Assembly (NCBI GenBank): GCA_013821455.1
Contig: JACDGS010000001.1
Span: 1 to 64,000 of the forward strand
Length of the DNA: 64,000 nucleotides
Direction: 5' to 3'
Source: Chthoniobacterales bacterium
GTDB lineage: Bacteria > Verrucomicrobiota > Verrucomicrobiia > Chthoniobacterales > UBA10450
A program made the position numbers and the translations under genes. The stretch's first letter is position 1, and the number at the start of each line of letters is the position of its first letter. This document shows, in pieces, positions 15,822 through 32,858 of the stretch. The notes beneath the pieces are model-generated. The model saw nothing but the letters and a program-made list of their open reading frames with translations, was not told where the DNA came from and ran no database searches.

Positions 15822-15840
15822 ACGCGCCGGTCGCGTAGGC

Positions 15841-16485
15841 TCAACCGCTCACGTCCCCGGTGGACTTCGCCGCCGCGGCCAGCGTTCCAAACGCTTCGCC
15901 GGGCGAGATCAGACGCGGCCGGAAACTGCTCGGCCGCACATTGCCGAGCCGGATCACCGCCGGTTGATTATCCGCGCAATCGCCGACAAACTCCGCCCGC
16001 GAAACCGCCGGCGCCCGGAGGTTGGGCTGAGTCAGCACCTCCATCACACAGATATCGTAGCGCGATCCATCCTCCCGCCGGAAACGCCCCTCGGGATGCT
16101 CGACCACGCGCAAATCGCACGGGATCTCCACCCCATCCGCCAGCAAACCGCAATGACTCCGCGCCTCCGCCTGTTCCGCCTCGGAGAGTTGCGGCGGGGG
16201 CGGCTTCGCCCGCGCCTGCACCGGCCCCGCGAGCAGGCTTGCCATGGCACCGTCCGCGTTCTCGTGCATCTGCGAGAAAGCGTACGACATTCCACCGAAC
16301 GTCGGGTAGAAGATTCGCGAGTGAACGAACCGCGCGCCGCTTTCCGGGGGCCTTGCGTGGCATTCATTCGGATCGTGTCCCCGGGCCACCGCGTTCGATC
16401 GCGAGGAATCGGTTGCGCTGCGCTGCACCCAGCCTTTGCCTGTTGGTGATGAGCCCTTGCGCAGGCGCAATCGCGCCCTGACCAC
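15841..16485 (-). CDS. Hypothetical protein
   Basis: An open frame of 214 codons whose second half reads like a real soluble protein (CGLLADGVEIPCDLRVVEHPEG, YDICVMEVLTQPNL, NQPAVIRLGNVRP), while the first 60 residues are Arg/Ser rich and probably not translated. ATG 16293 is a plausible true start. No family recognised. Three Cys are spread through the body. It sits at the junction between the PDH operon and the accessory block and may be a remnant. Confidence 0.4.
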   Translation of the reverse strand: MVRARLRLRKGSSPTGKGWVQRSATDSSRSNAVARGHDPNECHARPPESGARFVHSRIFYPTFGGMSYAFSQMHENADGAMASLLAGPVQARAKPPPPQLSEAEQAEARSHCGLLADGVEIPCDLRVVEHPEGRFRREDGSRYDICVMEVLTQPNLRAPAVSRAEFVGDCADNQPAVIRLGNVRPSSFRPRLISPGEAFGTLAAAAKSTGDVSG

Positions 16486-16582
16486 CGATAAGACACTGCA
16501 ACCCGCCTGCGCACCGCCTCTGTTTTCCCGTCACCCGCCATTATTCTGCCGTTAGCAGCCGCTGCGCGCCTGTCATCGATCG

Positions 16583-16680
16583 ATGTCACCCTGCAAGTCG
16601 CCTCTGCCTGAAGGTAAATAGTCTCTGATTGAATGTAATCGGCTCCTGATTCGATGTAAGTGGCGTCTGATCCGAAATGA
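16583..16680 (+). repeat. IS-end-like repeat, left copy
   Basis: Contains a run of degenerate units of about 20 bases (CTGAAGGTAAATAGTCT, CTGATTGAATGTAATCGGCTC, CTGATTCGATGTAAGTGGC, CTGATCCGAAATGATTTGGC) after TGTCACCCTGCAAGTCGCC. A second copy in the same direction lies at 31451-31545 with about 40 identical consecutive bases. Multiple short terminal repeats after a TGT tip are typical of IS21-family ends (family knowledge). No transposase gene remains beside it. Between 16681 and 16860 I see no supported gene. Confidence 0.6.
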
Positions 16681-16860
16681 TTTGGCTTCGATCAGAGGCA
16701 AAAGGAAGATTCTCGAAGCTAATAGCTCCTATGTCACAGATATTTACGGTTCTTCATGCTCCGAAGTCTCACTTGGCACCCATCTGTGCGCGCAGGAATT
16801 AGGCGGGTCGTCGACGAGCCCTATATTCTGCGGATCGCGGTCGCTACCGACCCGTCTGGA

Positions 16861-17030
16861 ATACGCTCGTATTCATCATGCGGGCCGATCCAGAACCGTT
16901 ACAACGTTTCGTCGTGGCCGCGACCGAGAGGCCGCCGCGCGTGATGCGGACTGCCCAGTACATCCCCTTTTTCTCAAAGCTGAACATCTCGGCGTCAGCG
17001 CGGCGTCAGTTTTCCAGGAACTAGGTCGCC
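16861..17030 (-). pseudogene. Decayed RelE-type toxin gene, copy 1
   Basis: This stretch aligns with the intact toxin gene at 21439-21699: both share ATACGCTCGTATTCATCATG, the GCGGACTGCCCA block and the CCCTTTTTCTCAAA block. About 70 bases of the middle and the reading frame are lost here, so no toxin can be made. It sits directly downstream of an open antitoxin-like gene, in the same order as the intact pair. Confidence 0.7.
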
Positions 17031-17243
17031 GAGGACTTCATCGAGGGGTTTTACCGGGCCAGCCTTGATGTCCTCCAGCGCCTCTCGCCAAAGAGATTCG
17101 AGCCGTCCCGTCTTGGCGTCTGCTTCGATCCGCCGATCCCATGCGTCCTCGAAATCAACCTCCGCGAGCTTCTCCAGGACTGCCCCTTTGGCGCTTTCGA
17201 CCAGCTGTTTTACAGCTCCGATGATCTCCGTCACGGCGCTCAT
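16995..17243 (-). CDS. Addiction-module antitoxin-like protein, copy 1 (orphan)
   Basis: An 82-residue acidic protein nearly identical in layout to the antitoxin at 21677-21901: shared TEIIGAVKQL, LEKLAEVDFEDAWDRRIEADAK and KPLDEVLGDL. The family (putative addiction module component, PF09720-like) has a helical acidic N-terminus and a toxin-binding tail. Because its partner toxin at 16861-17030 is degenerate, this copy is an orphan. Its C-terminus is replaced by a short unrelated tail (VPGKLTPR). Confidence 0.65.
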   Translation of the reverse strand: MSAVTEIIGAVKQLVESAKGAVLEKLAEVDFEDAWDRRIEADAKTGRLESLWREALEDIKAGPVKPLDEVLGDLVPGKLTPR

Positions 17244-17497
17244 GACTGGAGAATAGGTTGCCGAGTGATCTTGTCACCAGTGTGCCAAGGGCAGCCAATC
17301 GACTCGGCGCAGCGTTATTGAAAATTATGGGTGTGCGCGGTCGAATTGTCTCGGCCTAGATCTTCCAGAGTTCGAAACTCGCCGTCATTTAGAAGCCTGG
17401 AAGTGGCAAACTGGGACAAATCGATCGCGAACCCTGAAGTTTCGTGCTTGAGCTGTCCAGATGTAAAAAGTACGTTCAACAAAAGGAAATAAACCTT

Positions 17498-19714
17498 ATG
17501 AAAACGATCACCAAATCTGTGTCTCTCGCGTGCACCGCGATATCCCTCATGTGCTTTGCGCTGGCGCCGGGAGCGCGCGCCGAAACGCCTGGGCCGAGCA
17601 AAGTGGATCAAGCAACCCGTGCCCGGGTAAATGAAAGTTACGGCAAACTTCCCCTCAGCTTCGAAGCGAACCAGGGTCAGCAGGATCAACAGGTGAAATT
17701 CCTCTCCCGAGGCAGTGGCTACAACCTGTTCCTGACCAACCGCGAAGCTGTGCTGGTGCTGACGAAAGCGGAGAAGCCAGCGCTGGCGAAGAAGGGGATT
17801 CACCCGACGCCTTCGATTCTTACGCAGAAGAAGCCGCAGCGGCCATCGACCGTTTTGCGCACGCAGCTTGTGGCTGCCAATCCCGCCGCCAAAGTAACCG
17901 GGCGGGAGGAGTTAGCGGGGAAGATTAACTACTTGATCGGGAAGGATCCCTCCCAGTGGCGCACGGGGGTGGCGACTTACGCCAAAGTGCGCTACGACCA
18001 GGTCTATCCTGGCATCGACCTGGTTTACTACGGAAACCAACGGCAACTGGAATACGATTTTGTGGTGGGGCCCGGAGCCGATCCGGCTCGGATCCGGCTC
18101 AAGCTGGCCGGTGTGCGGAAGATGTCCGTGGACGGGCAAGGCCAGCTGGTGGTGGAGACGGCGGGAGGCAGCGTGCGCTGGAACAAGCCGGAAATTTATC
18201 AGGAAGTGGACGGCCAGCACCGATCCGTGAAAGGCAAATATGTTCTGCGGCGGGGCCATGAGCTAGGCTTTGCCGTGGCCGCCTACGATACGGCCCGGCC
18301 ACTGATTATCGATCCGATACTGGTCTACTCCACTTATCTCGGGGGCAACAGTTACGATGAGGGCTTCAGCATCGCGGTGGACAACTCTGGCAACGCCTAC
18401 GTTACAGGATTCACGGGTTCGAGCGACTTTCCCACGACCGCTGGGGCCTTCCAGACCACCCTCGGTGGTTCCAGCGGTTACTTCGATGTCTTTGTGACTG
18501 AGCTCAATCCCACTGGCTCCGGGCTTGTCTACTCCACTTATCTCGGGGGCAGCGGTGACGACCAGCCCTACGGGATCGCGGTGGACACCTCGGGTAACGC
18601 CTACGTTACAGGAGTCACGTATTCGTTCGACCTTCCCACGACCGCCGGGGCCTTTCAGACGACCTTCGGTGGTTTCGACGATGCCTTTGTGAGTGAGCTC
18701 AATCCCACCGGTTCCGGCCTTGTCTACTCCACTTATCTCGGGGGCAGCCTTTACGATTTCGGCTACGGCATCGCGGTGGACAGCTCCGGCAACGCCTACG
18801 TTGCGGGATACACGGCTTCGAGCGACTTTCCCACGACCGCTGCGGCCTTCCAGACGACCTACGGGGGTTTCGACGATGTCTTTGTGACTGAACTCAATCC
18901 CACCGGCACCGGTCTTGTTTACTCCACATATCTCGGGGGCAGCGCCGCCGATATTAGCTACGGCATCGCGGTGGACACCTCCGGCAACGCCTACGTTACG
19001 GGAATCACGGAATCGAGCGACTTTCCCACGACCACTGGGGCCTTCCAGACGACCTACGGTGGTGGTACCTACGATGCCTTTGTGAGCGAGCTCAATCCCA
19101 CTGGCACCGGCCTTGTCTACTCCACTTATCTCGGCAGCAGCGATGAGGATGAGGGCTACCACATCGCGGTGGACACCTCCGGCAACTTCTACGTTACAGG
19201 ATACACGTATTCGAGCGACTTTCCCACTACCAGTGGGGCCTTTGAGACGACTTATGGTGGTTACTACGATGCCTTCGTAGCGCAGTTTAGTGCGATCACA
19301 GGACCAACTCCGACCCCTACACCGACACCAACTCCCACCCCAACGCCGACCCCAACGCCTACACCCACTCCCACCGAAACGCCTTCTCCGACGCCAACTC
19401 CCAGTGCCACCCCAACCCCAACACAAACTCCGACACCAACTCCTACGGCGACCCCAACGCCGACACCGCAGTGTCAGATCGTGGTCGTGGCCGAAAAGCG
19501 CAGCGCGGGCCCAGGCCGATTTTTGGTTAAGCTCCACTGGACTGGGGCGAGGTCGCCCACGGTTAGGATCTTCCGCACTCCACCCCGCGGGGTGATCGCG
19601 TCCACGAGGCAAAACCACTACACGGACAGCATCACGGTGCGCGGGACCTACACTTACTCGGTGACCGACCGAGACGGCAACTGTTCGAACCAAGTGACCG
19701 TGACCTTCCCGTAG
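17498..19714 (+). CDS. Secreted SBBP-repeat protein with Thr-Pro linker
   Basis: A 738-residue exported protein. Signal peptide ([20 protein letters not shown]... to ARA), then a DUF7948-type N-terminal domain ([51 protein letters not shown]), then five SBBP repeats of about 55 residues each starting LVYSTYLGG and containing GNAYVTG and DFPTT. A Thr-Pro-rich linker of about 50 residues (19309-19470) leads to a small C-terminal beta domain (IVVVAEKRS...[20 protein letters not shown]). ATG 17498 has a good AAGGAAA ribosome site. Such proteins are extracellular or surface beta-propeller-like scaffolds; ligand unknown. Nothing else is seen in 17244-17497. Confidence 0.88.
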
Positions 19715-19900
19715 AGAATCAGAGACGGTGCGCGAGTTGGCCCAGGCGCCAGGTGGCGGAAACGAGCGGCAAGTTGGGTCGATTGCCGAGCGAGTCGCGG
19801 GAAAGGGGTCAAGGGGGCAGAAAGGCTCAGATAACATGAAAGCAGTTCGAAGCGGAGCGAGATTCGGGAATGGAACTCAACCCGAAAGGAGAACGACAAA

Positions 19901-19936
19901 ATAAACTACATTGGCATCGACATTCATAAGCGATAG
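19901..19936 (+). mobile_element. IS110-family transposase N-terminal remnant
   Basis: Reading from ATA at 19901 gives INYIGIDIHKR and then a stop. NYIGIDIHK is the conserved start of IS110-family DEDD transposases, carrying the first catalytic Asp. A good ribosome site (GAAAGGAG) precedes it and the start codon has become ATA. Nothing else of the element is recognisable. The preceding 19715-19900 holds no gene. Confidence 0.5.
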
Positions 19937-20358
19937 CAAGCTGCCAGGCGCCTCATGCCGCCTTCGGCATCTCGTCGTAAGTGCGATTTCCGAGAAGGCG
20001 ACCGGTGCGATGTCTGCGCACGCCGCCCCATTGCTTGAAGAAGAACGGCACTTTCTGCTTGCGACAGGAACATCAATTTAGAAGCCAGGAAACCAGGATG
20101 AGAATTCTCAAGCCATCTTTTCTGGTTTTATGGATTTCAAATTCCTTCTTAGCTCCGCAGATCGATCCCGGCCAGCGAGCCAATGAGCGGCTCGCGGATG
20201 GCCGCGGGCACTTCGCGCAGGTCATCGATGCGATCGAAGACGCGGCTATCTTCCACGCTCACGCCCATCCAGACATTCTTCGGCCACGGTAGTTTCGCGG
20301 CCAGCTTCCGCATCCGGTCGCTCCGCTTCGTCAATACCTGGCAGGCAACCGGCGCTGA

Positions 20359-20564
20359 TTAGAGATCGCGAAACTGTTCTTCTGTCAGCCGCGCCTGTTT
20401 CAAGATGCTCCGAAAAGTTCCAGTCGGCACATCCTTGGTATGCAGGGCTACGTAAGTCTGGCGACCATCCGAATGGCGCAGGACAATGTGCGACCCTGAT
20501 TGTCGCTTTACCACAAACCGGCGCGCTGTAATCGCGCCAACACCTCACGCGCTTTGTAAGGCAC
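20359..20564 (-). pseudogene. hicA: HicA-type mRNA interferase toxin, frameshifted
   Basis: From GTG 20564 the frame reads [16 protein letters not shown] and then breaks. The next frame continues FVVKRQSGSHIVLRHSDG, then RQTYVALHTKDVPTGTFRSI and LKQARLTEEQFRDL to a TAA. Joined, this is a complete HicA with the catalytic His in GSHIVLRH. One base is missing near 20512-20524 (the total length is 206, not a multiple of 3). It overlaps hicB. Either the toxin is dead or the base is a sequencing error. Confidence 0.75.
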
Positions 20565-20793
20565 TCTCGGAAATCTCGATGGTCGAGAAAAACGTCTCGG
20601 CGGGCAGGTCAATCGCTTCCCCCGCAGCGCGCTTTTCGCTCAACCACAACTTCAACAGATCCTCCGCAGCCGCGCGCGCTCCTTCGATTCCCTCTCCATG
20701 CGTCGTCAAACCGAGCGCAGGCACATGCGCATAATAATAGCCTTGCGGCAGGTCGGACGTGCCTGGTTTTTCAAAAAGGATGCCGTACGTCAT
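20545..20793 (-). CDS. hicB: HicB-family antitoxin
   Basis: An 82-residue protein: [31 protein letters not shown]... with the HicB partial RNase H-like fold ([32 protein letters not shown]). HicB neutralises HicA and represses its own operon. The gene precedes hicA, the reverse of the commoner hicA-hicB order but known in this family. It lies inside the remains of the first DUF5131 gene. ATG 20793 is the start; the longer open frame upstream is DUF5131 sequence read in another frame. Confidence 0.8.
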
Positions 20794-21167
20794 ATGGAGA
20801 GTCGCAGCATCGGCCGGTGAGTGGCGAAATTCAAATCTGACAAGGTCGGCATTCTTCGAGTCCGCGGCAGATCGATCGCCTCCTCGGGCAGAGTAACGCG
20901 AAACCCACCCCGATAACGATGATTCCCCATCGCCTGCAAGCGCAACGCCAGCCGCTCCGCGTAGCAATTCTTGCAGCCGGCGCTGGTCTTCGTGCAGCCC
21001 GTCACCGGATTCCACGTCGCCTCCGTCCATTCGATGTGTGAGTGATCCGCCATACTCAGAAATTATTGGCTTGCCGCCTAACGAGATTTCCGTGATCTTC
21101 CGTCCGAAGCACCGAAAGCGCGTATGCGTCGTAGGTGCTGATTTTTTTAGGCGGAGGCGAATTCGCC

Positions 21168-21407
21168 TTATACTCCAAGCGAGATCTCGCGGGTGTCGCC
21201 AGTGACTTCGTTGACCACGACAAAGTTGCCGCCGTTGTCTCCGCGAAGCTGTTCGTTCGCATTCAGAAGCTCGACGCCGTAAACACTGCCGTCCGCTCCG
21301 ATATCGACGGCGAACGATTCGTTTACCCGGATCGTCTCCACTTGCGCGATCTTCTCCTGAAAACTGAGATAGGCGACGTTGTAACGCGGGTCATAGGTCA
21401 GTTTCAT
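21168..21407 (-). CDS. DUF2283 family small protein
   Basis: A 79-residue protein starting MKLTYDPRYNVAYLSF, then VNESFAVDIGADGSVYGVELLNA: the DUF2283 pattern of short beta strands (Y-D-xxx-D-xx-Y/L-xx, then D-xx-G-xx-xGIE/VELL). DUF2283 proteins are often near toxin-antitoxin genes with DUF4258 partners. Here it follows the toxin gene at 21439-21699 on the same strand, 31 bases away, so it may belong to that operon. An uptake-like motif at 21076, the only exact one between 15.7 and 28.0 kb, lies just downstream. Confidence 0.75.
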   Translation of the reverse strand: MKLTYDPRYNVAYLSFQEKIAQVETIRVNESFAVDIGADGSVYGVELLNANEQLRGDNGGNFVVVNEVTGDTREISLGV

Positions 21408-21438
21408 CGGGGTTCAAAAATGCTTTACGATCACTGGA

Positions 21439-21699
21439 TCACCTTCGGTTGAGGATACGCTCGTATTCATCATGCGGTCCAATCCAGAACCAATACAAAG
21501 TTCCGTTGTGAACACGGCCAACGGCCCGCCAGCCGCGCGAGATGCGGACTGCCCAATACATTCCCTTTTTCTCAAAACGCAGAGAAGAGTGCCGCGGGTT
21601 TCGTTGCCACAGGCGCCAGGCCTTCCGCGCCTGCCGCTGAACATCTCGCGGCAGCGCAGCGTAAGCTTGCCAGAAGCTAGGAGTCGCCGAGGACTTCAT
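21439..21699 (-). CDS. RelE/ParE-superfamily toxin (intact copy)
   Basis: An 86-residue basic protein: SFWQAYAALPRDVQRQARKAWRLW followed by NPRHSSLRFEKKGMYWAVRISRGWRAVGR and a tail HDEYERIL. The strand-turn pattern with SLRF, WAVRI, RAVGR and HDEYE is characteristic of RelE-like toxins, several of which cut mRNA on the ribosome; the exact target is unknown. It overlaps the antitoxin gene by 23 bases. The degenerate version lies at 16861-17030. Confidence 0.8.
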   Translation of the reverse strand: MKSSATPSFWQAYAALPRDVQRQARKAWRLWQRNPRHSSLRFEKKGMYWAVRISRGWRAVGRVHNGTLYWFWIGPHDEYERILNRR

Positions 21700-21901
21700 C
21701 GAGCGGTTTTACCCGGCCAGCCTTGATGTCCTCCAGCGCCTCTTGCCAAAGAAAGTCGAGCCGTCCGGCCTTGGCGTCTGCCTCGATCTGGCGATCCCAC
21801 GCATCCTCGAAATCAACCTCCGCGAGTTTCTCCAGAAATTCCCCTTTGGCCTGTTCGTCCAGCTGTTTCACGGCTTCGATGATCTCCGTCACGGTGCTCA
21901 T
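21677..21901 (-). CDS. Addiction-module antitoxin (intact copy)
   Basis: A 74-residue acidic protein (MSTVTEIIEAVKQLDEQAKG, FLEKLAEVDFEDAWDRQIEADAK, GRVKPLDEVLGDS). It resembles the putative addiction module component family (TIGR02574/PF09720). It precedes and overlaps its RelE-like toxin, the usual order, allowing translational coupling. The paralogue at 16995-17243 differs at about a dozen positions. Confidence 0.78.
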   Translation of the reverse strand: MSTVTEIIEAVKQLDEQAKGEFLEKLAEVDFEDAWDRQIEADAKAGRLDFLWQEALEDIKAGRVKPLDEVLGDS

Positions 21902-21961
21902 GACTGAAGAATAGATTGCCGGAGTGATCTTGTCACGAGCGCGCAGGCTGATCGCTCCAGC

Positions 21962-22651
21962 TCACGCGGCCTTCGGCATTTCGTCGTAAGTGCGTCCGCC
22001 GAGCTCGCGCCCAGTGAGATCCTTCCGCACGCCGCCCCATTGCTTGAAGAAAAATGGCACCTTCTGCTGGCGACAGGCGCGAAAGAATTCCCGCACCCAC
22101 TCAATCTCCATCGATCGTGAATGCGGCCCGGACTCGCCGCCGACAATCACCCAATAAATCCCCCGCAGATCGATCCCGGCGAGCGAGCCAATGAGCGGCT
22201 CGCAGGAGAGAAAGCGGATGGCTGCGGGCACTTCACGCAGGTCATCGATGCGATCAAAGACGCGGCTATCTTCCACGCTCACGCCCATCCAGACATTCTT
22301 CGGCCACGGCAGTTTCGCGGCCAGCTTGCGCACCCGGTCGCTCCGCTTCGTCAACACTTGAAAGGAATGCTGCGGACATTCCTCCATCGTCTTGAAAACC
22401 CTGCGGATGAACCAAAGCGGCACATCCGGATGAAACAGATCGCTCATCGAGTTCACGAAGATGCGGCGCGACTTCTTCCAGGTGCGCGGCAGATCGACCA
22501 CATCCTCATGTAAAGTGACCCGAAACCCCCGCCGATAACGATGGTTCCCCATCGCCTGCAAGCGCAGCGCCAGCCGCTCCGCGTAGCAATTCTTGCAGCC
22601 GGAGCTGATCTTTGTGCAACCTGTCACCGGATTCCACGTCGCCTCCGTCAA
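21962..22651 (-). CDS. DUF5131 (phage Gp37/Gp68) family protein, copy 2
   Basis: A 229-residue protein with the three-Cys motif [17 protein letters not shown] near the N-terminus, then [54 protein letters not shown] and a C-terminal FFFKQWGG. The Cys spacing and TIM-barrel-like motifs suggest a radical-SAM-related fold. Phage and island copies are of unknown function, often beside three-Cys-motif partners. Compared with copy 1 the natural start is lost: the codon that is GAA in copy 1 is TAA here, leaving a TTG at 22651. It may thus be poorly expressed or inactive. Confidence 0.75.
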
Positions 22652-22784
22652 TTAGATGTGTGAACGAGCCGGACACTCGCCGACGTTGCGACTGGATCGT
22701 CACATCTCTAGATTCACCGTGGAAGTAAACCCTCATGTGTGCAACGCCTTGCACTCATTTAGTGGGCAAGCGACATTCGGTGGA

Positions 22785-23819
22785 ATGAAAGAGATTTCCG
22801 GATTGCAAAGTGGCGACCTTGGTCGTGAATCGGAGAACCTTCCTACGTGGAACGGCGTCACCTGGTCAACAGTGCCGAATCCCAGCGCTGCAAAATCCTT
22901 CCTCAGCACACCCTTTATTGGAAGGGAGACGCTCGTCCCGAATTCTTCATTTCCTTACAATCTCTCCGCGACTGGCCTCATTGGAGAACCTTTCAGGTCT
23001 TTGAGTAAAATCAGGTCTCTAAGTGAAATCGATCAGGACCCCGAGGTCAGAGACTTGAAAAGAGAGATCGTTGATCTCCAAAACAAGGTATCAAGTTTGG
23101 CGCGCCATTTGAGTATGGAACAAGTCGATAAAGAACAGACGAAGACGCAGTTAGCGCTGCTCAAGAAGGCGTTGCAAGATCTCAATAAAAAGGAGGAGCT
23201 GCGTTTCCTCCTTAGCCACGTCTCAGCGGAAGCGAAAAGTGTGATCCTCGGAAGCGATGGTCTGCGCGCGCAATTTTTTTCAGCGAAAGCACATACAGCG
23301 TATGTTGTGTCGATCGACATCCGGCGCTCGACAGAGTTGATGCTGAAGGCTCGAACACCGTCGCACTTTGCAGCTTTCATGACGCACCTGTGTTCGCAGC
23401 TAGAAAACATAGTAAAGGAGTCGTTTGGGGTCTTCGATAAATTTACCGGAGACGGTATTCTCGCTTTTTTTCCAGAATTCTTTTCCGGTCCCGACGCTGG
23501 TTTTCATGCACTTGCGGCAGCCGAACGTGCATTAGCAACCTTTGCAGATTCATATCGTCGTCATAGGTCTTCATTCACCACAGTGCTTCGGGACGTTCAC
23601 CTCGCTATAGGTATAGACTTTGGAAGTGTTCATCTCGTAAAAGTAGCGGACAGCCTCACAGTCGTGGGCGGGCCTGTCGTTTATGCATGCCGCTTGTCCA
23701 GCGGTCCTCCGGGCACGATTCTCCTTAATCAGCCGGCCTATGAAAGAATTTCGGACAGGTATGGTGGCCTCTGCCTAATGACTGAACCGCCGTCGACATC
23801 AAGTATGAGGGAGGCGTGA
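22785..23819 (+). CDS. Class III nucleotidyl cyclase (Pycsar-cyclase-like), 3' frameshift
   Basis: From ATG 22785 the protein has a variable N-terminus (WNGVTWSTVPNP), a coiled coil (about 85-140) and a class III cyclase domain. Metal-binding aspartates are in VSIDIRRST (D178) and KFTGDGILAFFP (D223), with HLAIGIDFGSVHLV and VVGGPVVYACRL following. The combination IDIRRSTELMLKAR / FDKFTGDG resembles the pyrimidine cyclases (PycC) of Pycsar anti-phage systems, from memory of the family. The frame ends at 23819, but the next frame continues VDIKYEGGVICYELRSSNKP up to a TAG at 23983, so one base seems missing near 23787. ATG 22656 is an alternative start. No obvious effector gene adjoins. Confidence 0.7.
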   Translation: MKEISGLQSGDLGRESENLPTWNGVTWSTVPNPSAAKSFLSTPFIGRETLVPNSSFPYNLSATGLIGEPFRSLSKIRSLSEIDQDPEVRDLKREIVDLQNKVSSLARHLSMEQVDKEQTKTQLALLKKALQDLNKKEELRFLLSHVSAEAKSVILGSDGLRAQFFSAKAHTAYVVSIDIRRSTELMLKARTPSHFAAFMTHLCSQLENIVKESFGVFDKFTGDGILAFFPEFFSGPDAGFHALAAAERALATFADSYRRHRSSFTTVLRDVHLAIGIDFGSVHLVKVADSLTVVGGPVVYACRLSSGPPGTILLNQPAYERISDRYGGLCLMTEPPSTSSMREA

Positions 23820-24012
23820 TTTGCTATGAGCTGCGATCTAGTAACAAGCCCTTCAAGCCGAAACCGCCTCCTTGGCTAGGTCGATCTGGGAATCACATGT
23901 CTGGCACGGGTGTGCCGGAGAGACGAAAAAGGGTCAAAGGGAAGGGCGGCCGTCACCGGATTTCGGCACGCCCGAAAAAGTAGAAGGTCCTCCTCTCCCC
24001 TTCGGGCAAATA

Positions 24013-25008
24013 CTAAAATGTTCCTCTTTCCAAATAGACGCTTAGAGCATGGAGTCCGTCGTCTCGAAGTATCCGCAGCATCTCTTCCAGAGGATGAAGG
24101 TCGCCGGAAATTGAAAAGTGCATGTCGAGCTCCGCGCCGCGGTAGTTCATGGCGAATCCGCGGACTCGAAGTGCGTAAGCTCTGTCAAAGAGCTTTTCCC
24201 GCAAGAGCGCATCCGCGCGACGCGCGGACAGGACACGCCAGACGGCGCCGCGAATCTGCTCGAGAAAGTCTCTGAGGGATTCGGCCATGCCGAAGTCCGC
24301 CGGTCGAGATGTGATTGCTCGCACGATCGCATCTTCGACTTTGCGCTTGCCTTGGACGCGAGCGGAATGCCGCGCCCGAGTGGCGAACTCGATGACATCG
24401 GCGGGGACTGCTGCTCCTACCACTGCGCCGGTGAGATGAGGCACACCGACAATCACGAAAATGTATGGCAGGTGTTCGTGCTCCTGCTTCTGTAAAGCGC
24501 TGTAAATCTTGTAGGTCGCAAGGGCGAAGCAGTCTTCGGACGGAAGTCCGACCAGTTCTTGAGCTTTGCGAAATTGGGATCCGTGGAACTTGATATTAAG
24601 CCGGAAGACTTGCCGGCCCTGGCCGTTGCGGACGAGATAGTCGGTATCGCCTCCCCCTGAACGATCGTCTTCCAGGGTGAGTTCTCGGGTAACGACGGTG
24701 CGCCGATAGTTATCTTCGAAAACTTGTTCGGCGAGATTGCCGATGATCAGTTGGCCAATCGTTGCTCGGACTTTTTGTTCCTTTTCGTGATGATCGGTCG
24801 CGGCCTTTCCTAGCAAATGCGACACCGGGGCCGCCGCTTGCACCAGTTTGCCCAGGTTCCCCGGGGTAGTTCCTACGCTGCGCGCGGCCTCTTTAAGGGG
24901 AACGCCGGAGCGGACCGCGGCCAGACCTGCGAGCAGGTGCAATGGCTTAGGACGATTTGAATCACCGTAGACTTTGGCGAGTAACCGCTCCAGCTCGTCC
25001 AGAGTCAT
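24013..25008 (-). CDS. Putative type II restriction endonuclease
   Basis: A 331-residue protein. Residues 1-60 look like a helix-turn-helix region ([19 protein letters not shown]). The body contains a PD-(D/E)XK-like nuclease core: GGGDTDYLV (D121, D123) and, 15 residues on, FRLNIKFHG (K140). Its start overlaps the stop of the neighbouring DNA methyltransferase by ATGA, and coupling with a methyltransferase is the best evidence that it is a restriction enzyme. Recognition sequence unknown. Base composition is less GC-rich than the core genes. Confidence 0.7.
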
Positions 25009-26018
25009 GCCACGGCTTTGCCACTCTTCGCTAATTGCCGAAATCTAACTCGGGAGGCGAGCAGGTAGTCGGGTTTGATCTCGACCGAAATCCATCTGCG
25101 GCCGAGGCTTTCGGCGGTAGCTCCGGTCATGTTACTCCCGGCAAATGGATCAAGGACGATCGCGCCTTCGTCGGTCAGAAACTTGATAAAGAATTCGGGC
25201 AAAGCGCGGGGAAAACGCGCCGGGTGTGCCTTATATCCAGCTTCGGCACACGCGCGGATGTAATCCGAATTGCTCTCATTATTCCCGCGCTCGATGAGAC
25301 TTGAGGGAATCGCTCCGCCATGGTCCTGGCCGAACTTCGCTGTAATGATGTGACCGCTGGGACGCTGCTTCGGTTTGTAACCCCGCTTGAGCAGCCGTTT
25401 CATATCCGCGCTGTATTCATTGAGCACATGGCGGTTGTTCGCTTTTGGAAAAGGAGTCTTGCTCAACCACCAGATATATTCGACGGCGTCCTTTACTCGC
25501 TGCCGCCGCACCGTTACCCACTCGGCCGGCGACGGAAGCTTGGCCGGATTATGCCAGAAACATTCCTGCGCGAGGTGAAAACCCACCTCTTCGCAAAGCA
25601 TGAGAAGCGCTTTGAAATGGTAGAGAGACCGCGTCGGAGTGCCCTTGTTGTAGCTCCCGCCAATATTCAGAACGAAGCTTCCCTCGGGCTTCAGGATGCG
25701 ATGAACTTGCTCTCCAAAAGGCTTTAACCATGAGACATATTCGGCCTTGTCGACATTTCCATACTCCTTTTTGAAGTGAAGGGCGTAAGGCGGAGAAGTG
25801 ACGACCAGATCGATCGACCCCTCCGGCAACTGACGCAAAAGGTCGAGGCTGTCTCCCAAGTAGGCCGCTCCAAACGACGTCGAATAAGAGGGGCGACTTC
25901 GGAAAAATCGGGCCGGCCAAGAGCCGGTCTTCGTCGGCTTCTGGACAAAGTAGAGTTGTTCCTCCTCACGGACGCGTGGCGACGCTTTGTCTTTTTTTGG
26001 CGTCGCTTGTTTCGGCAT
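25005..26018 (-). CDS. DNA methyltransferase, beta class (TSPPY)
   Basis: Transfers methyl from SAM to an exocyclic amino group in DNA. The catalytic motif TSPPY (residues 74-78) comes before the SAM-binding [10 protein letters not shown] near the C-terminus, the beta-class order; SPPY favours N4-cytosine but N6-adenine is possible. The insert between them ([37 protein letters not shown]) is typical. ATG 26018 lies 9 bases after the stop of the MmeI-like gene. Open sequence upstream to 26132 is that gene in another frame. It is the modification partner of the downstream nuclease. Confidence 0.88.
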
Positions 26019-26026
26019 GAGATTGT

Positions 26027-26467
26027 TTACCACGAGCGTGTCCTCGTCTCCATCAAGAAGTCGTAAATCCAGAACTCGTCGAAGTTGCAGAGGATGACGT
26101 AGGGCGGGCGCTTCGGGACGATGTGCGTCCAATAGTCGAAGGCCTGGTCGTAGTGCTTCTCCAAGTTCGCGCCGCGCGATTTCATCTCGATGAGGACGCG
26201 GTCGGGCCAGAGGAGATCGGCGAATTTCTTGCCGCCTTTGGGCCGGGCGGGGTCACCGCCCCCGCCTACAACTAGCTCCAATTGGGCGGAGCCGGGCTTT
26301 TTCGCGACGCGAAACTCGAACGTGGCACCGGCTTCGATCGCACCGGCGTGACCGAGGGCGCGGAAGAAGTGGTCGAGGAAGGTTTGGGCCTCGCTCTTCT
26401 CATCGCCGCGCAACGAACGAGCGAAGTTCGTGAAACCAGTTAACGACGCCCTCAGTTCATCGGCCAT
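26027..26467 (-). CDS. Stand-alone MmeI-type N-terminal nuclease domain
   Basis: A 146-residue protein matching only the N-terminal domain of MmeI-like type IIL restriction-methylation enzymes: [31 protein letters not shown], then [21 protein letters not shown] (D84, E94, K96 of a PD-EXK site) and [15 protein letters not shown]. Full MmeI-like enzymes are about 900 residues or more and continue into a methyltransferase. Here a stop follows and a different, beta-class methyltransferase begins 9 bases later. It may be a truncation remnant or a real separate subunit of this R-M operon. Confidence 0.75.
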
Positions 26468-26575
26468 TGCTCAAGATAAATACGCAGGCCGGCGACGAGA
26501 ATGCGAAAACATTCTCGCCGCCGGAATTCGCACCTTGGCGGAGCGGCGCATCGTGCCTCTCCGCCGCTGTCCGAT

Positions 26576-27293
26576 TTACGGCGCCGGCGGCGCCGGCGGG
26601 GCCGGTGGCGTTGGCGGAGTTGGGGTCGGCGTGCCGCTGCTCTGCGAGCCCGTGTCGGTGATCTTGCGTGCGTTTTGGTAGGACATGACGAATTGCGGGT
26701 TCGTCTCCTCGAGTTGCCGGATTAGGCCGTCGATCCGGTCTTTCACGATCATATCGGCCCGGGCGAACTCCTGCCGGAGGAGTTCGGTGTGCATACTCCG
26801 TTCTCCGCGCGCCATCTTCGGGCTCGCGATGGCCAGGCGGTAGGCGTCGATGCGGGTTTGGAGCGCGGTTAGCGTCGGGGCAGTGACGCCGTAGTCGGCC
26901 AGTTGCGCGAGGACGCCGTTTGCGTCGTCGTGCACTCCCTGCGCGATGTCGTCGCGCTCGTCGTCCCGCGCTCGAGTGAAAGTGGTGTCGCTCAGATCGG
27001 CCTTGTGTTGCAAGGTCGAATTCCCTTCTGCGCTGGCATAGGCCTTGACCGCGCCGGCCACGCGCATCGCATAGCTGACCATTTGGGCTTGGAAGTTCTT
27101 TTTATCGACGGTGATGCCGGTGGTGACCGCAGACTGGGCCTGCGCCAATGAATCGATGAGCGAGACGCTATCCGAGGAGGTTTTGCTGTTGCGTGACCAG
27201 GGCGGGCACTCCCGCGAACACGGCGGCGTTCGTGGTGAGAACCTCTGCGGTGGTGCGATACATTCCGAGTTTGTTTTCCTGTCGGTCGTTCAT
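26576..27293 (-). pseudogene. Unknown helical protein with Pro-rich tail, copy 1 (frameshifted)
   Basis: The natural start is ATG 27293 (MNDRQENKLGMYRTTAEVL...) and the frame breaks near 27170, where one extra G follows CTCCTC compared with copy 2. The rest continues in another frame (LIDSLAQAQSAVTTGITVDKKNF...) to 26576. Joined, it is about 239 residues, mostly helical, with a Pro/Thr/Ala tail (GTPTPTPPTPPAPPAPPAP). The second part alone is open from 27148. No family recognised. A decayed copy lies at 31930-32651, and similarity extends about 130 bases upstream. Confidence 0.6.
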
Positions 27294-27485
27294 GACGACT
27301 GTTTCCTTTCCTTTGTTTGGTTGAGGTGCACCGCCGAGGAACCACTCGTGGCCGGAATGAGGGTCGCGGGAGGAGGTTGGCGGGGATTAATTTAGCGCGA
27401 TTAAAATCGGAAACGGGGCGGCCGCTCAAATCGAGTATTTCGACTATTCAGAATCCGGCAGCGCGGTCTCCGGACGGGAGCGCGC

Positions 27486-29132
27486 CTAACTCTCGCTGCC
27501 CGCGACGGGAACCGGCAGTGCGACGCGGAGTGATCTCGCCTGCTCCAGGTGGCGCAGGTCGAGCCCACGCGTCTCGGTGCCGTAACGTAGGAAGAGGGCG
27601 AGCGATAGGATGATCGGAATCATGATGAGCACGGCAGTGACGCCGAGGGGCGGGACCAGCGCCAGAATGCTGAGGCATTGCGCCAGCACTCCTCCCCCCT
27701 TGGTGAACATTGCAACCCAGCCCGTGGCGCGGCCGCGGATCTTAATGGGATAACTTTCCGAAGCGTAGGGAAGCAGAATGGCGATGATGCCGTTGCTTCC
27801 GATAATGAGCAGTCCTACCGGCCAGACTGGGTTGCCGCCGACGTGAGTTTCCAATTTCAGCACCCAGAGCAAGCCGAGGAGCGTGAGCGTAATGAAGGAT
27901 GTGAGGGCCCACTTACTGCTAAAACGGCTGTAAATGTAAGTACAGAGGAAGACCGTCGGGAAAGCGATCAGCGCAGATTCGGCCAGCAGCTTGCTCGAGA
28001 GGGCCATCGAATAGCCTTTCGACACGAGATCGTTAGGCATCCAAAGGAGGAGGCCGAAGTTGATCAGTCCCCACGAGAGTGCAGCGATGGTGAGGGCAGC
28101 GGTCTTGCCGATCAGCGCCGGTGTCCAGAGGCTGGCCTCTTCGGTTTCTTCCTGCGGCGGAGCAGAATGGTGACTGAATGGGACCACTTCGGATTCGTCT
28201 TCTTCGCCTGCGGTTAGTTCGTGAGTCACGGTGCCAAAACGCTTCATGACGGCGTGCGCCTCGGCGTTGCGCCCTCGCGTGAGGAGGAATTTCGCCGACT
28301 CCGGGATAAAACGTCCGAGGCCGAGAAGGATGAGCCCCGTGGGAAGGTTCATCAGCCAGAGGATGCGCCAACTGAAGATCGGCTCCAGGGTGGCGGCGAA
28401 CACGCTGGCGACAACATAGCCGCCGACGGCGCCAAGCCCGCCTACCAGCACTAATGACCAGCCGCGGTGCTTCGAGGGCATCATTTCGGCGAGCAAAGCG
28501 TAGGTCACCGGCAACATGCCGCCGGCGCCAAATCCCATGAGGAAGCACATTCCGATGTTCCAATTCAACGAAGGCATCGCGCCGCAAATGGAAGTGCCGA
28601 TGAAGACCACCGCGGACAAGAGAATCGCCGCCTTGCGACCGTAGAAATCCGCCAGGACACCCCAGAGAATCGAACCGAGAGCCGTCCCGATAAGGGCGGA
28701 GAAAGGGACGAGGGAAGCGTGAGCTTTGGTGGTTTGATATTCGCGAATCATTCCGGGGATGGTGAACCCGAGAGTGGCGGGCTTCATGACGTCGATAATC
28801 AAGGCGACGACGAGTGTCGCCATCAAGATCCAGTGGGCGCGACTAAGCGGAGCATCTTCCGGCGCCACAACGGTGACGCGCGAGCTGACCACCGCATTAT
28901 AAGCCGCTTTGCTCGGCAAGAGCCCGTAGCCGGCCGCGATGACGCCGGCAATAATCAAATACATCCCAAAGATCATGCCCGGATCCATCGGCATGCCGTA
29001 GAGCACGAAGTGGTTGGTGTGTCCCATCCAGAACATCGGGATGTGGAGGAGCACGCCGATGGTGACGGCGATACAGCCTAAGGCAAAAGCCCAGACTCCG
29101 CGGCGATCGAGAAAGACATTGGTTGTAATCAT
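27486..29132 (-). CDS. Major facilitator superfamily transporter
   Basis: A 548-residue permease with about 14 hydrophobic segments. The MFS loop signature appears as WGVLADFYGRKAAIL after helix 2 of the transporter core, and RGWSLVLVGGLGAVGG and PESAKFLLTRGRNAEAHAVM resemble the metabolite:H+ / aromatic-acid symporter branch. The first 100 residues add extra membrane helices ahead of the MFS core. The central loop is acidic (GEEDESEVV). Substrate unknown. It lies between duplicated segments, suggesting insertion. One uptake-like motif (28030) is present. Confidence 0.85.
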   Translation of the reverse strand: MITTNVFLDRRGVWAFALGCIAVTIGVLLHIPMFWMGHTNHFVLYGMPMDPGMIFGMYLIIAGVIAAGYGLLPSKAAYNAVVSSRVTVVAPEDAPLSRAHWILMATLVVALIIDVMKPATLGFTIPGMIREYQTTKAHASLVPFSALIGTALGSILWGVLADFYGRKAAILLSAVVFIGTSICGAMPSLNWNIGMCFLMGFGAGGMLPVTYALLAEMMPSKHRGWSLVLVGGLGAVGGYVVASVFAATLEPIFSWRILWLMNLPTGLILLGLGRFIPESAKFLLTRGRNAEAHAVMKRFGTVTHELTAGEEDESEVVPFSHHSAPPQEETEEASLWTPALIGKTAALTIAALSWGLINFGLLLWMPNDLVSKGYSMALSSKLLAESALIAFPTVFLCTYIYSRFSSKWALTSFITLTLLGLLWVLKLETHVGGNPVWPVGLLIIGSNGIIAILLPYASESYPIKIRGRATGWVAMFTKGGGVLAQCLSILALVPPLGVTAVLIMIPIILSLALFLRYGTETRGLDLRHLEQARSLRVALPVPVAGSES

Positions 29133-29552
29133 ATGTGCTGGTGTGGTTGCGGTCGCCCCTCCTTTCGTTACCGGCCGCTGCCACGGCCAAATCTTGGGCG
29201 ACCAAAGATTAGGCTTATGTTGTTATTGATTTCGCCGATAGTAGAAAGAAGCGGTGAAAGTGGCAACCAAAAACTTTGGAGGGCGCACTGCGCCTTGGCG
29301 TCGTGCCAAGTCTCAGCGCGGGGCTCGTCCCGTTACTCCTCTGGAAATTCACAACCACTCATCCGGGCGTGAATCTGAGCGCACGATCTGGCTGCGGAGC
29401 CGCTCAAAGGAAAAAGGCCCTCGCTCGAAATTGGCCTCCCGAGCCCGCTCGATTCCGGCGCGGTAGCTTGGGTGGAAAAGTTCGCGAGCTGGCGCGAGGG
29501 ATGGCGCGCCCCTAATCTCGAGATAGCGATACTGCTCCTTATTCTTGCGCTG

Positions 29553-29786
29553 ACGGGGGGGCCCAGCGAATCTGTTAGGCAGAAGTGGAATCGCCTTCGC
29601 CTAACGAAAAAAACTGCGGATTATTTCCTTTGCCAGCCACGCGGCGCGCGGTTTGATGCGCGACCAGACGACGGCGCAAGGCAATGTTCGGCATCGTGGT
29701 GGTGGTGGGTGTCATGCTTTTTTGCGGCGCGACTTTTCTCGCGCCGCTGCTCGCTCCGCACCAGCGGCCCGTCTGGTTTAAAGATT
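29553..29786 (+). pseudogene. 5' fragment duplicating the small membrane protein gene at 32859
   Basis: Matches 32845-33065 with gaps: both start with TGTTAGGCAGA, share an uptake motif (29599 / 32867), CATCGTGGTGGTGG, TGTCATGCTTTTTTGCGGC and CGCACCAGCGGCCCGTCTGG. Here the frame is broken and the second membrane helix is missing, so it is a remnant. The rest of 29133-29871 shows no gene I can support. Confidence 0.65.
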
Positions 29787-29871
29787 CTCTCTCATTTCGT
29801 CTTTTCCTCTAGCTACTCCACCGTCGCTCTAACAACCGTGCTTGGTATTCCTATGAAGTAGCTCTTGGAAG

Positions 29872-30372
29872 TCATTTTTTCTTTAAAGGTAGAACCCATT
29901 CTAAGTCTCTAAATGGCGAATAGGTGACCTCTGATAAATTGCAAGTCGGGTCATACATATTTTGAAAAGGCTTACCATTTACAGATACCTGCAGGTCCGC
30001 CTTGATAATGGGATTCTTGATGTCCTCTTGTTGTGGCAAATACTGTTTCAAGAATTGGACGTATTGAAACAGCATATAGGGATTGTTCACCATGACTAGT
30101 TGCTTCTCGTTCAACAATTTCTCGGGAGAATGAACGTAAACGTTTAGTGTCCGCGGATCTTCGATGGTGATGCTACCATTAGTTTCATGGTGATCCGCCA
30201 TCATCCGCCAGGAAAAGCTGCTTCCTTCGTGTGTCCACTGTAGCTCTCTCTTGTATAGCAAATGCCGCAACGGGAGCAGAATTTGGAGGGATATGTAACT
30301 AACGACTAAGCCCAGAATCCAAGGCGATGCTTTTCTAGGCATACCTTCTTTACTTACCTTCCTTCTTGTCAT
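29872..30372 (-). CDS. Gamma-carboxylase-like C-terminal protein
   Basis: A 166-residue protein with one N-terminal membrane segment (WILGLVVSYISLQILLPLRHLLY) followed by a soluble part with SFSWRMMADHHE and NGKPFQNMYDP. Human vitamin K-dependent gamma-carboxylase has a comparable W-x-MM strand and a C-terminal beta domain just after its membrane domain. Its start overlaps the stop of the HTTM gene by 4 bases, so the two genes together look like one carboxylase split in two. The sequence is clearly AT-rich compared with the surroundings. Confidence 0.65.
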   Translation of the reverse strand: MTRRKVSKEGMPRKASPWILGLVVSYISLQILLPLRHLLYKRELQWTHEGSSFSWRMMADHHETNGSITIEDPRTLNVYVHSPEKLLNEKQLVMVNNPYMLFQYVQFLKQYLPQQEDIKNPIIKADLQVSVNGKPFQNMYDPTCNLSEVTYSPFRDLEWVLPLKKK

Positions 30373-31331
30373 GTCTTAGCCAGCCTCGGCACATACTTCG
30401 ACAAAGGCCCGTTAAAAACACGCGCCATGGCATTTCTGATTAGAGGGGTTGGTAGGAACAAGATATAAGTCGAGATCATTAAGTAGGGGAACGTTTTGAT
30501 TCCCAGACCGAAGAGAAAGATGTTCAGACCGTTGAAGAGGCAGAGCCAGACAAAGGTTAACTTATAGCAGCGACCGATAACTAACAATATCCCTAACCCA
30601 AGGTCCGATAACATCCCTCCCCAACTAAGGACCACTGCCATCCATTTTGCTTGCAGAGGATAGCCCAGAAAAGAAAAGTGTTTGACTAGGTTCAGATAAA
30701 GGGGCGCGGCATAGATTAGCCAATCCGCGTTCATTTTGGCCAGGGCGCCAAAGAAGAACACGACACATATCTGGAAACGTAACAAAAATAACTCCCAATA
30801 ATCTACTTGTTCCCTTCGGGCATTTTTATTGATTAGACTATCAAGAGAAAAGGTGGAGCCGGAATGACCAAAGCACAGCAAAAATGAGAGCAGAAAAATG
30901 AGATAGTAATGATTGCTGTATACGGAGCTCTCCATGAAAAAGAAGTAGCCGAATGTCGCCGTAAAAACGATAAGAGATATGCGAGTCAATAGACCTAGCA
31001 TGATACCAACAGTCGAGATTTTCAGGACGTCAAAAATCAACCAAAGAGAAGGCTGAGAAAGAGGCTTTAATCCTAGAAGGTCGAAAAGTGGATAAGTAAA
31101 GTGGAACGAGGGTTTGATATAGGAATAAGGGAACGTCTCGCGGCTTACGACGAGAAACTCGAGACAGAGCAAGAACCCAAAAAGAAACCGAAAGATTCCC
31201 AGGGGCAGGGAATCAACGGGTTGGAATAAGTTCTCTTTAAACTTTCCCCACTTTGCCTGCGGCCCATTGCGCGCCTTTTTCCGTTTCAGAACGAAGCTGG
31301 CCTTTGGTTTTGAGCTTGTTCTCTTTTTCAT
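30369..31331 (-). CDS. HTTM (vitamin K-dependent gamma-carboxylase-like) membrane protein
   Basis: A 320-residue protein with a Lys/Arg-rich N-terminus and about eight membrane helices. Family landmarks: SLGIFR-like PLGIFRFLFG, YSNHYYLIFLLSFLLCFGHSG and FFFGALAKMNADWL, whose Lys corresponds to the proposed catalytic Lys218 of the human carboxylase. In bacteria the HTTM family's substrate is unknown. It is coupled to the following C-terminal gene by an ATGA overlap. AT-rich codon use and lack of uptake-like motifs suggest recent acquisition. Confidence 0.8.
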   Translation of the reverse strand: MKKRTSSKPKASFVLKRKKARNGPQAKWGKFKENLFQPVDSLPLGIFRFLFGFLLCLEFLVVSRETFPYSYIKPSFHFTYPLFDLLGLKPLSQPSLWLIFDVLKISTVGIMLGLLTRISLIVFTATFGYFFFMESSVYSNHYYLIFLLSFLLCFGHSGSTFSLDSLINKNARREQVDYWELFLLRFQICVVFFFGALAKMNADWLIYAAPLYLNLVKHFSFLGYPLQAKWMAVVLSWGGMLSDLGLGILLVIGRCYKLTFVWLCLFNGLNIFLFGLGIKTFPYLMISTYILFLPTPLIRNAMARVFNGPLSKYVPRLAKT

Positions 31332-31450
31332 CTCATCGGGCGGGAGGTCGCCGCAAAATTAACCGCGGTCGACAGCCTGTCGAATGTCGAGCTTTGCCTG
31401 GCCCAGTTCGGAATCGTGTGTCTTTCGACTTTGCCGACTTGTCAGCGGCC

Positions 31451-31545
31451 AAATGTTACCTGCAAGTCACCTTTTGCTCGAAGGTAAATGGTCGCTGATT
31501 GAATGTAATCGGCTCCTGATTCGATGTAAGTGGCGCTGATCCTGC
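31451..31545 (+). repeat. IS-end-like repeat, right copy
   Basis: Same order of short units as at 16583-16680: CCTGCAAGTCACC, GAAGGTAAATGGTCG, CTGATTGAATGTAATCGGCTC, CTGATTCGATGTAAGTGGCG. The middle 40 bases are identical to the left copy, and the direction is the same. Beyond it, 31546-31915 holds only a weak 78-codon open frame on the minus strand (31645-31881) with no recognisable family. I do not call a gene there. Confidence 0.6.
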
Positions 31546-31929
31546 GTAAAGTTTAACGGTGAGATCGTCTCACTCTATGCTGCAATAAACGTACGGAGAG
31601 CGCAGGCCTTGTTGCCCGCTAGTTTCGGATATTAACCGAAGTGGTTATCGCACGTCTTGAAGATGAGGTTCCGGGTCCGCTCCGTCTCGCCCGTGACGAA
31701 GGCCCCCTCCTAACGCTAACTCGAACGCACAATGGGCGATTCGGTTAGGTCGAAACTTTAGGATAGGCAATCGCTTGCACAGCGTTTTCTGAACTCCAGA
31801 AGCCAGATGCTCTGCCACCTCGTTAGCGTAGGGCGGCTGACCCGTCGAACGCGAGAACCACCTCAAGAAGTACGGTAACATCGTTTACCTGAGGCTTTCG
31901 GGGAGTTGAACTTATTTAATTATCAGGAC

Positions 31930-32651
31930 GGCGTTGCAGTGACGCGTGCACGCAACGCCGCCCCGATGACCTCGGCGTCGTTGGTGCTGGCGGTGTGCCG
32001 CCGCTGCCTTGCACGCCGGCGCCGGTGATCTTGCGCGCGTTTTTGTAGGACATGACGAATTGCGGGTTCGTCTCGTCGAATTGCCGAATCAGGCCGTCGA
32101 TCCGGTCTTTCAGAACCATGTCGGCGCGCAAGAACTCCTGCCGGAGAAGTTCGGTGTTGGTCGAGTTGGTTTTGCGCGCCATCTCCGGGCTCGCGATCGC
32201 GAGCCGGTAGGCGTCGATGCGGGTTGCAGTGCACTCAGCGTCGGGGCCGTGACGCCGTAGTCGGCCAGAGCGGCGAGGACGCCGTTGGCGTCGTCGTGCA
32301 CTTCCCGCGCGGTGTCGTCGCGCAATCCGTCCCGCGCCCGGGTGAAGTCGGTGTCGGTCAGGTCGGCCTTGTGTTGCAAGGTCGCGTTTTCTTCCGCGCT
32401 TGGCGTAGGCCTTGACCGCGCCGGCCACGCGCAAGGCGTAACTGATCGTCTGGTCGCGGAAGGTTTTCTCATCGATGGTGATGCCGGTGGGGAGACCGGG
32501 CCTGCGCCAATGGATCGATGAGCGCAATGCTATCGAGGAGGTTTTGCTGTTGCGTGACCAGGGCAGGCACTCCCGCGCACGGCGGCGTTCGTTGTGAGCA
32601 CCCCTCCGGTGGTGCGACACATTCCGAGTTTGTTTCCTGTCGGTCGTTCAT
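31930..32651 (-). pseudogene. Unknown helical protein, copy 2 (several frameshifts)
   Basis: A decayed copy of the gene at 26576-27293. Recognisable blocks in changing frames are MNDRQETN, GVPALVTQQQNLLDSIALIDPLAQA, ITIDEKTFRDQTISYALRVAGAVKA, ATLQHKADLTDTDFTRARD, and RIDAYRLAIASPEMARKTN through ETNPQFVMSYKNARKI. At least four frame changes are needed, and the Pro-rich tail is lost. It still aligns at high identity, so the duplication is not ancient. Confidence 0.65.
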
Positions 32652-32858
32652 GACGCTGTTTCTTTCCGGTTTTTAGTTGGAAGTGAACGCCAACCGAATC
32701 GCTCGTAACCCGACTTCGGAATCCCGAGCGGAGGATGGCGGAGATTAATTATGCACGATTAAAATCGGAGGAACGCTTTTCCATCAAAACAAAATTGCGC
32801 GCCGATAGGAGAGCGGTGGTTGCGTTCGGGAGTAGGGCGGCCAGCTTGTTAGGCAGAG

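What the first reader, a model, noticed from the sequence alone, without database searches (positions are those of the whole stretch)
29872..31331. Gamma-carboxylase-like enzyme split into two coupled genes
The HTTM membrane part and the C-terminal part, one polypeptide in vitamin K-dependent carboxylases, are separate genes with an ATGA overlap. The key Lys region (ALAKMNADW) is kept. The genes are AT-rich and lack the uptake-like motif, so they look newly acquired. The bacterial substrate is unknown and no obvious peptide substrate gene is next to them.
Basis: partly seen in the sequence, partly recalled or inferred. Interest (0 to 1): 0.6.

Follow-up and report, generated by a model that had tools for sequence, protein, structure and literature searches.

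The report
Two-gene version of vitamin-K carboxylase-like enzyme
A soil Verrucomicrobia genome carries a bacterial relative of the vitamin K-dependent blood-clotting carboxylase whose membrane part and outer part are made by two overlapping genes; the split is real, because a second genome has the same pair at 74-79% protein identity, but what the enzyme modifies is still unknown.

Summary
ORF 30369-31331(-), 320 aa, is an HTTM domain. ORF 29872-30372(-), 166 aa, is a VKGC lumenal domain; they overlap by ATGA. Together they match human GGCX TM1-8 and TM9 plus lumenal domain, in sequence and predicted fold. The split is not a read error: another Verrucomicrobia MAG (QHPE01000131.1) has the same pair and junction, and both ORFs are under purifying selection (dN/dS 0.17 and 0.31). 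All other intact homologues examined (87 compared residue by residue) are fused, so this is a rare split lineage. The break lies in the cytosolic TM8-TM9 loop; the second protein has its own basic N-terminus and signal anchor, and the active site should form between subunits. Catalytic and quinone-pocket residues are kept (K218, H160, N159, W223, F286/F294/F299, M401/M402 equivalents), but the Glu-contact position Y395 is Ser in both split pairs and in none of the 87 fused homologues. The cassette is AT-rich, sits at different places in the two genomes, has lower dS than neighbouring core genes, and is absent from 81 of 83 family genomes, which indicates horizontal transfer. No substrate gene is shared. 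Substrate and activity are unproven.

The parts
30369..31331 (-). Gene 1: HTTM membrane subunit, 320 aa, equivalent to GGCX TM1-8
   Evidence: Pfam PF05090 E=3.5e-55; GGCX E=2e-32; AF2 pLDDT 89, VIA-align Z 27 to GGCX residues 46-354
29872..30372 (-). Gene 2: signal anchor (TM9 equivalent) plus lumenal/periplasmic domain, 166 aa
   Evidence: Pfam PF22777 E=9.9e-37; GGCX 367-505 E=7.5e-12; AF2 pLDDT 90, only GGCX chains hit at E<0.001
30369..30372 (-). ATGA stop/start overlap, conserved in L011
   Evidence: both genomes read TAAGACATGACAA at the junction
30376..30378 (-). TAA stop in the frame of gene 2, two codons upstream of its ATG, conserved in L011; argues against a programmed -1 frameshift giving a fused protein
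   Evidence: sequence read directly; no slippery heptamer near the HTTM stop in the window gene
30735..30737 (-). Codon of K199, equivalent to GGCX active base K218
30909..30914 (-). Codons of N140-H141, equivalent to GGCX N159-H160 (Glu pocket / catalysis)
   Evidence: residue roles from PMC12589487
29853..31239 (.). AT-rich cassette: extent of DNA homology with L011 (82%)
15822..32858 (.). About 17 kb variable region (island) holding the cassette; in same-genus genome G291 the place between pdhC and gene B is about 1 kb

Best explanation
The two genes encode the two halves of one VKGC-like enzyme as separate proteins that assemble in the cytoplasmic membrane. Shown by sequence: subunit 1 (HTTM) corresponds to TM1-8 and carries the quinone pocket and the catalytic Lys/His/Asn; subunit 2 corresponds to TM9 plus the lumenal domain and carries the linker residues (M401/M402 equivalents) that close the active site in GGCX; the break lies in the cytosolic TM8-TM9 loop. 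Inferred: subunit 2 inserts with N-in/C-out topology through its own basic N-terminus and signal anchor; the ATGA overlap couples translation (stop then restart) so that both subunits are made together; they pair without a covalent bond and form a shared active site. There menaquinol is oxygenated to the epoxide by the Lys base, and the strong base so formed deprotonates a periplasmic substrate, with or without CO2 capture. The cassette was gained by horizontal transfer. Protein Glu carboxylation is the default chemistry by homology, but the altered Glu-contact position (Y395 to Ser) leaves a different substrate, or epoxidation alone, quite possible.
For: Both domains found with strong scores and both match human GGCX in sequence and fold (HTTM model aligns to GGCX 46-354). 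Independent genome L011/G369 has the same pair, 298+166 aa, same ATGA and same preceding TAA. Purifying selection since the two diverged, i.e. after the split: omega 0.17 (95% CI 0.11-0.24) and 0.31 (0.19-0.49), third codon positions changing most. Residues kept: N159, H160, K218, D222, W223, G259, F286, N290, F294, F299, S398, M401, M402 (roles from PMC12589487). Basic termini on the cytosolic side: HTTM N-term 13 K/R in 36, C-term 5 K/R in 26, gene 2 N-term 6 K/R in 16. Own genome has two aminofutalosine synthase genes over cut-off, so a menaquinone route is likely, and two VKOR-family genes.
Against: No complex could be predicted (each half was folded alone). No activity data. Y395 is Ser, D442 is Tyr and R476 is Lys in both split pairs, positions that contact Glu or hold the domains together in GGCX. 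No substrate gene is linked. menA was not found, so the menaquinone pathway is inferred from the futalosine branch only. Both genomes are draft assemblies in many contigs.
Confidence: 0.72

Rival explanations
1. One gene broken by a read error, assembly error or recent frameshift (artefact or pseudogene).
For: One inserted base at the junction would join the frames, and the joined linker would be of ordinary length (sequence read directly). Frame-broken VKGC genes do occur in draft genomes (L009/L126, HTTM broken midway; L147, lone lumenal fragment).
Against: The same junction occurs in an independent genome with 21-26% residue divergence. Both ORFs intact with omega well below 1.
Confidence: 0.03
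2. The pair is an epoxidase only: it oxygenates menaquinol, perhaps in a redox role, and does not carboxylate protein.
For: Quinone pocket and base fully kept while the Glu-contact residue Y395 is Ser in both pairs and in 0 of 87 fused homologues. From memory, not checked here: the Leptospira homologue was reported to have epoxidase but altered or no carboxylase activity.
Against: N159 and H160, which also hold the Glu side chain in GGCX, are kept. The lumenal domain is under purifying selection, which suggests it still binds something.
Confidence: 0.3
3. A programmed frameshift joins the two ORFs so that the active product is one fused chain.
For: ORFs overlap in adjacent frames, and all other intact homologues in this sample are fused.
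Against: A conserved TAA sits in the second frame two codons upstream of the second ATG in both genomes, leaving almost no room for a -1 shift, and no slippery heptamer lies near the stop in the window gene. Heptamers in L011 near codon 283 would shift into that TAA.
Confidence: 0.04
4. An SdpAB-like maturation pair for a secreted peptide (Bacillus SdpB is an HTTM-type protein with a small partner SdpA of similar size).
For: Similar two-gene sizes (recalled, a lead only). HTTM proteins also occur in linaridin peptide clusters (PMC9927463).
Against: Neither protein hits an NCBIfam model at E<=1, and the SdpA model finds nothing in this genome although it rings in B. subtilis. No peptide gene is shared by the two loci.
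Confidence: 0.05

Closest known systems
Fused bacterial VKGC-like proteins (HTTM + VKGC_lumenal_dom, about 450-530 aa)
   Same: Same two domains in the same order, same catalytic and quinone-pocket residues, same short length without the GGCX C-terminal part
   Different: One ORF in all other intact loci examined; at most 39% identity to the window HTTM; Y395-equivalent is His/Tyr/Phe/Met/Asn, never Ser; D442 and R476 equivalents usually kept
Human/animal gamma-glutamyl carboxylase GGCX
   Same: Fold of both halves, K218, N159, H160, W223, phenylalanine pocket, M401/M402
   Different: GGCX is one 758-aa chain with a second propeptide-binding lobe and Arch domain, K217, and a C99-C450 disulfide; all absent here
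Leptospira interrogans glutamyl carboxylase homologue
   Same: Bacterial homologue thought to be horizontally acquired (PMC4555120)
   Different: Single gene (from general knowledge); not compared by sequence here
SdpA/SdpB of Bacillus subtilis
   Same: Two-gene arrangement, HTTM-type membrane protein plus small partner (from general knowledge)
   Different: No match to any NCBIfam model, those of SdpA and SdpB included; no peptide gene beside the pair

Membership tests
VKGC-like superfamily (HTTM + VKGC lumenal domain) | HTTM domain | tested here: met
   PF05090 187.8 bits, cut-off 27.7
VKGC-like superfamily (HTTM + VKGC lumenal domain) | VKGC lumenal domain | tested here: met
   PF22777 126.6 bits, cut-off 27.7, in a separate ORF
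VKGC-like superfamily (HTTM + VKGC lumenal domain) | Catalytic base K218, with N159 and H160 | tested here: met
   K199, N140, H141 in the window; same in L011 and 87/87 fused
VKGC-like superfamily (HTTM + VKGC lumenal domain) | Quinone pocket (V210, W223, G259, F286, N290, F294, F299, M401) | tested here: met
   All identical in the window pair
VKGC-like superfamily (HTTM + VKGC lumenal domain) | Fold of both halves | tested here: met
   Only GGCX chains hit at E<0.001; HTTM Z 27, rmsd 3.0 over 287 residues
Vitamin K-dependent gamma-glutamyl carboxylase (as in animals) | Single polypeptide carrying both parts | tested here: not met
   Two ORFs, conserved in L011
Vitamin K-dependent gamma-glutamyl carboxylase (as in animals) | Glu-contact residue Y395 | tested here: not met
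   Ser51 in the window and Ser in L011
Vitamin K-dependent gamma-glutamyl carboxylase (as in animals) | C99-C450 disulfide and K217 | tested here: not met
   Phe/Phe and Ala; C99 and K217 also absent in all 87 fused bacterial homologues
Vitamin K-dependent gamma-glutamyl carboxylase (as in animals) | Carboxylation of Glu and epoxidation of reduced vitamin K | not testable with these tools
   Needs an assay
SdpA/SdpB | Match to the NCBIfam models of SdpA (TIGR04034) and SdpB | tested here: not met
   No NCBIfam hit at E<=1 for either protein; SdpA model not found in the genome
SdpA/SdpB | Adjacent peptide precursor gene | tested here: not met
   No third gene shared by the two loci

The most novel reading that the evidence does not exclude
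A two-subunit menaquinol-dependent carboxylase/epoxidase in which the detached lumenal subunit acts as a substrate-choosing partner with a reshaped Glu pocket (Y395 to Ser), spread as a self-contained two-gene cassette and acting on a substrate encoded elsewhere in the genome.
Probability: 0.15. Interest if true: 0.65.

Novelty: new variant of a known kind. Interest (0 to 1): 0.42.

Why it matters
The function of bacterial relatives of the vitamin K-dependent carboxylase is an open question. A natural split at the cytosolic TM8-TM9 loop suggests that the two halves can work as separate proteins. It offers a direct tool: each half can be expressed, mutated or swapped on its own to ask which one binds the substrate and which one oxygenates the quinone.

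Tried and rejected
Read error or pseudogene: rejected by L011 and dN/dS. Programmed frameshift: rejected by the conserved TAA. Viral carriage: two IMG/VR scans found no relative. Plasmid carriage: only four distant records, each with HTTM and lumenal matches close together. Small Glu-rich ORF next to the genes: none shared between the loci. SdpA in the genome: none. Donor by tree: the split pair forms an isolated long branch; its join with human GGCX looks like long-branch attraction, and without human its place among the fused forms is unclear, so the donor is unknown. No paper found describes a split VKGC, but the library holds open-licence papers only.

Full report
What is there. Pfam names the first HTTM (E=3.5e-55) and the second VKGC_lumenal_dom (E=9.9e-37). 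Human GGCX is the only clear solved relative: residues 47-312 match the first (E=2e-32) and 367-505 the second (E=7.5e-12). AF2 models of each half are confident (pLDDT 89 and 90), and only GGCX chains match them at E<0.001. VIA-align places the first protein on GGCX 46-354 with Z 27 over 287 residues, rmsd 3.0.

Is the split real? Yes. A scan of GTDB genomes found one close relative, L011 (QHPE01000131.1, Verrucomicrobia isolate AV36), 79% identical over the HTTM protein and 74% over the lumenal protein. It has the same two ORFs (298 and 166 aa) with the same ATGA junction: TAAGACATGACAA in both. Both ORFs are under purifying selection since the two cassettes diverged, thus after the split: omega 0.17 (95% CI 0.11-0.24) and 0.31 (0.19-0.49). 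In both genomes the frame of gene 2 has a TAA two codons before its ATG, so a -1 frameshift could join the frames only within a few bases, and no slippery heptamer is near the stop in the window gene. Two separate proteins made by coupled translation is the natural reading; the coupling itself is inferred.

Is the split common? No. Among the loci examined, 86 have both domains in one ORF of mostly 440-530 aa (a few loci are redundant); the only exceptions were the window locus and L011, each listed twice. Across the whole order (213 genomes), 10 have a lumenal domain and only these two genomes have the clean split; one more (L009/L126) is broken inside the HTTM part, a different thing. Wider samples of the class and phylum gave fused forms, long forms of 770-882 aa with an insert in the lumenal domain, and two broken fragments.

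Anatomy. The break is in the cytosolic loop between TM8 and TM9 of GGCX. Gene 2 starts with a basic stretch (MTRRKVSKEGMPRK, 6 K/R in the first 16) followed by a hydrophobic helix (residues 17-32), so it can insert N-in/C-out on its own; the HTTM protein has basic ends on the same side. In GGCX the active site lies between these parts: K218, N159, H160 and the quinone pocket in TM1-8; Y395, S398, M401, M402 in the linker after TM9 (PMC12589487). In the window pair K218, N159, H160, D222, W223, G259, F286, N290, F294, F299, S398, M401 and M402 are all kept. Y395 is Ser in both split pairs but His, Tyr, Phe, Met or Asn in all 87 fused homologues; D442 is Tyr (Asp in 75/87) and R476 is Lys (Arg in 80/87). 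The quinone side therefore looks intact and the substrate side changed. The C99-C450 disulfide cannot form, and C99 and K217 are also missing in all fused bacterial homologues.

Origin. The cassette is 39-44% GC in 55-60% GC surroundings. DNA homology between the two cassettes covers window 29853-31239 only, i.e. the two genes without the first 31 or so codons of gene 1 and with about 20 nt after gene 2. In L011 it lies beside a DUF6580 gene and pdhA; in the window it lies about 17 kb from pdhA, on the opposite strand, inside an island that in same-genus G291 is replaced by about 1 kb. dS is 0.74 and 0.49 for the cassette against 1.3 and 2.0 for pdhA and pdhB of the same two genomes, so the cassettes parted later than the genomes. 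81 of 83 family genomes lack it; seven of them have a different VKGC homologue, fused except the broken one in G294. At least one horizontal transfer is the simplest account. The donor is unknown: on trees the pair is an isolated long branch.

How it most likely works. Subunit 1 holds menaquinol and the Lys base; subunit 2 closes the pocket and presents the periplasmic substrate. Oxygenation of menaquinol to the epoxide gives the strong base that removes a proton from the substrate. That both subunits are needed, and that the substrate is Glu, is inference. The host probably makes menaquinone by the futalosine route (two aminofutalosine synthase genes over cut-off; menA not found) and has two VKOR-family proteins, although the bacterial VKOR homologues studied up to 2015 did not reduce vitamin K epoxide (PMC4555120).

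Verdict. It is a new split variant of a known enzyme family, not a new kind of system.

Noticed in passing
window 15822-32858: About 17 kb island between pdhC and gene B/dgt, absent in same-genus G291; holds a duplicated DUF5131 region, a DNA methylase next to a possible restriction gene (24013-26467), an SBBP/DUF7948 beta-propeller protein, an MFS-type transporter and the VKGC cassette.
   Followed up: partly
window 29598-29780: Fragment of the gene at 32859-33218 (29672-29780 is 95% identical to 32961-33069) that ends abruptly about 90 bp from the end of the lumenal gene; looks like a recombination edge of the cassette.
   Followed up: partly
window 16584-16686 and 31459-31542: Near-identical repeats with short internal units resembling insertion-sequence ends; the second copy lies just upstream of the HTTM gene.
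   Followed up: no
window 26576-27411 and 31916-32769: Two diverged copies (about 83%) of a gene with no Pfam hit, on both sides of the MFS gene and cassette.
   Followed up: no
L137-L140, L142-L145: Verrucomicrobia VKGC homologues of 770-882 aa with about 250 residues inserted inside the lumenal domain.
   Followed up: no
L147:1297-1731 and L141:1231-1656: Degenerate VKGC fragments, likely pseudogenes.
   Followed up: partly
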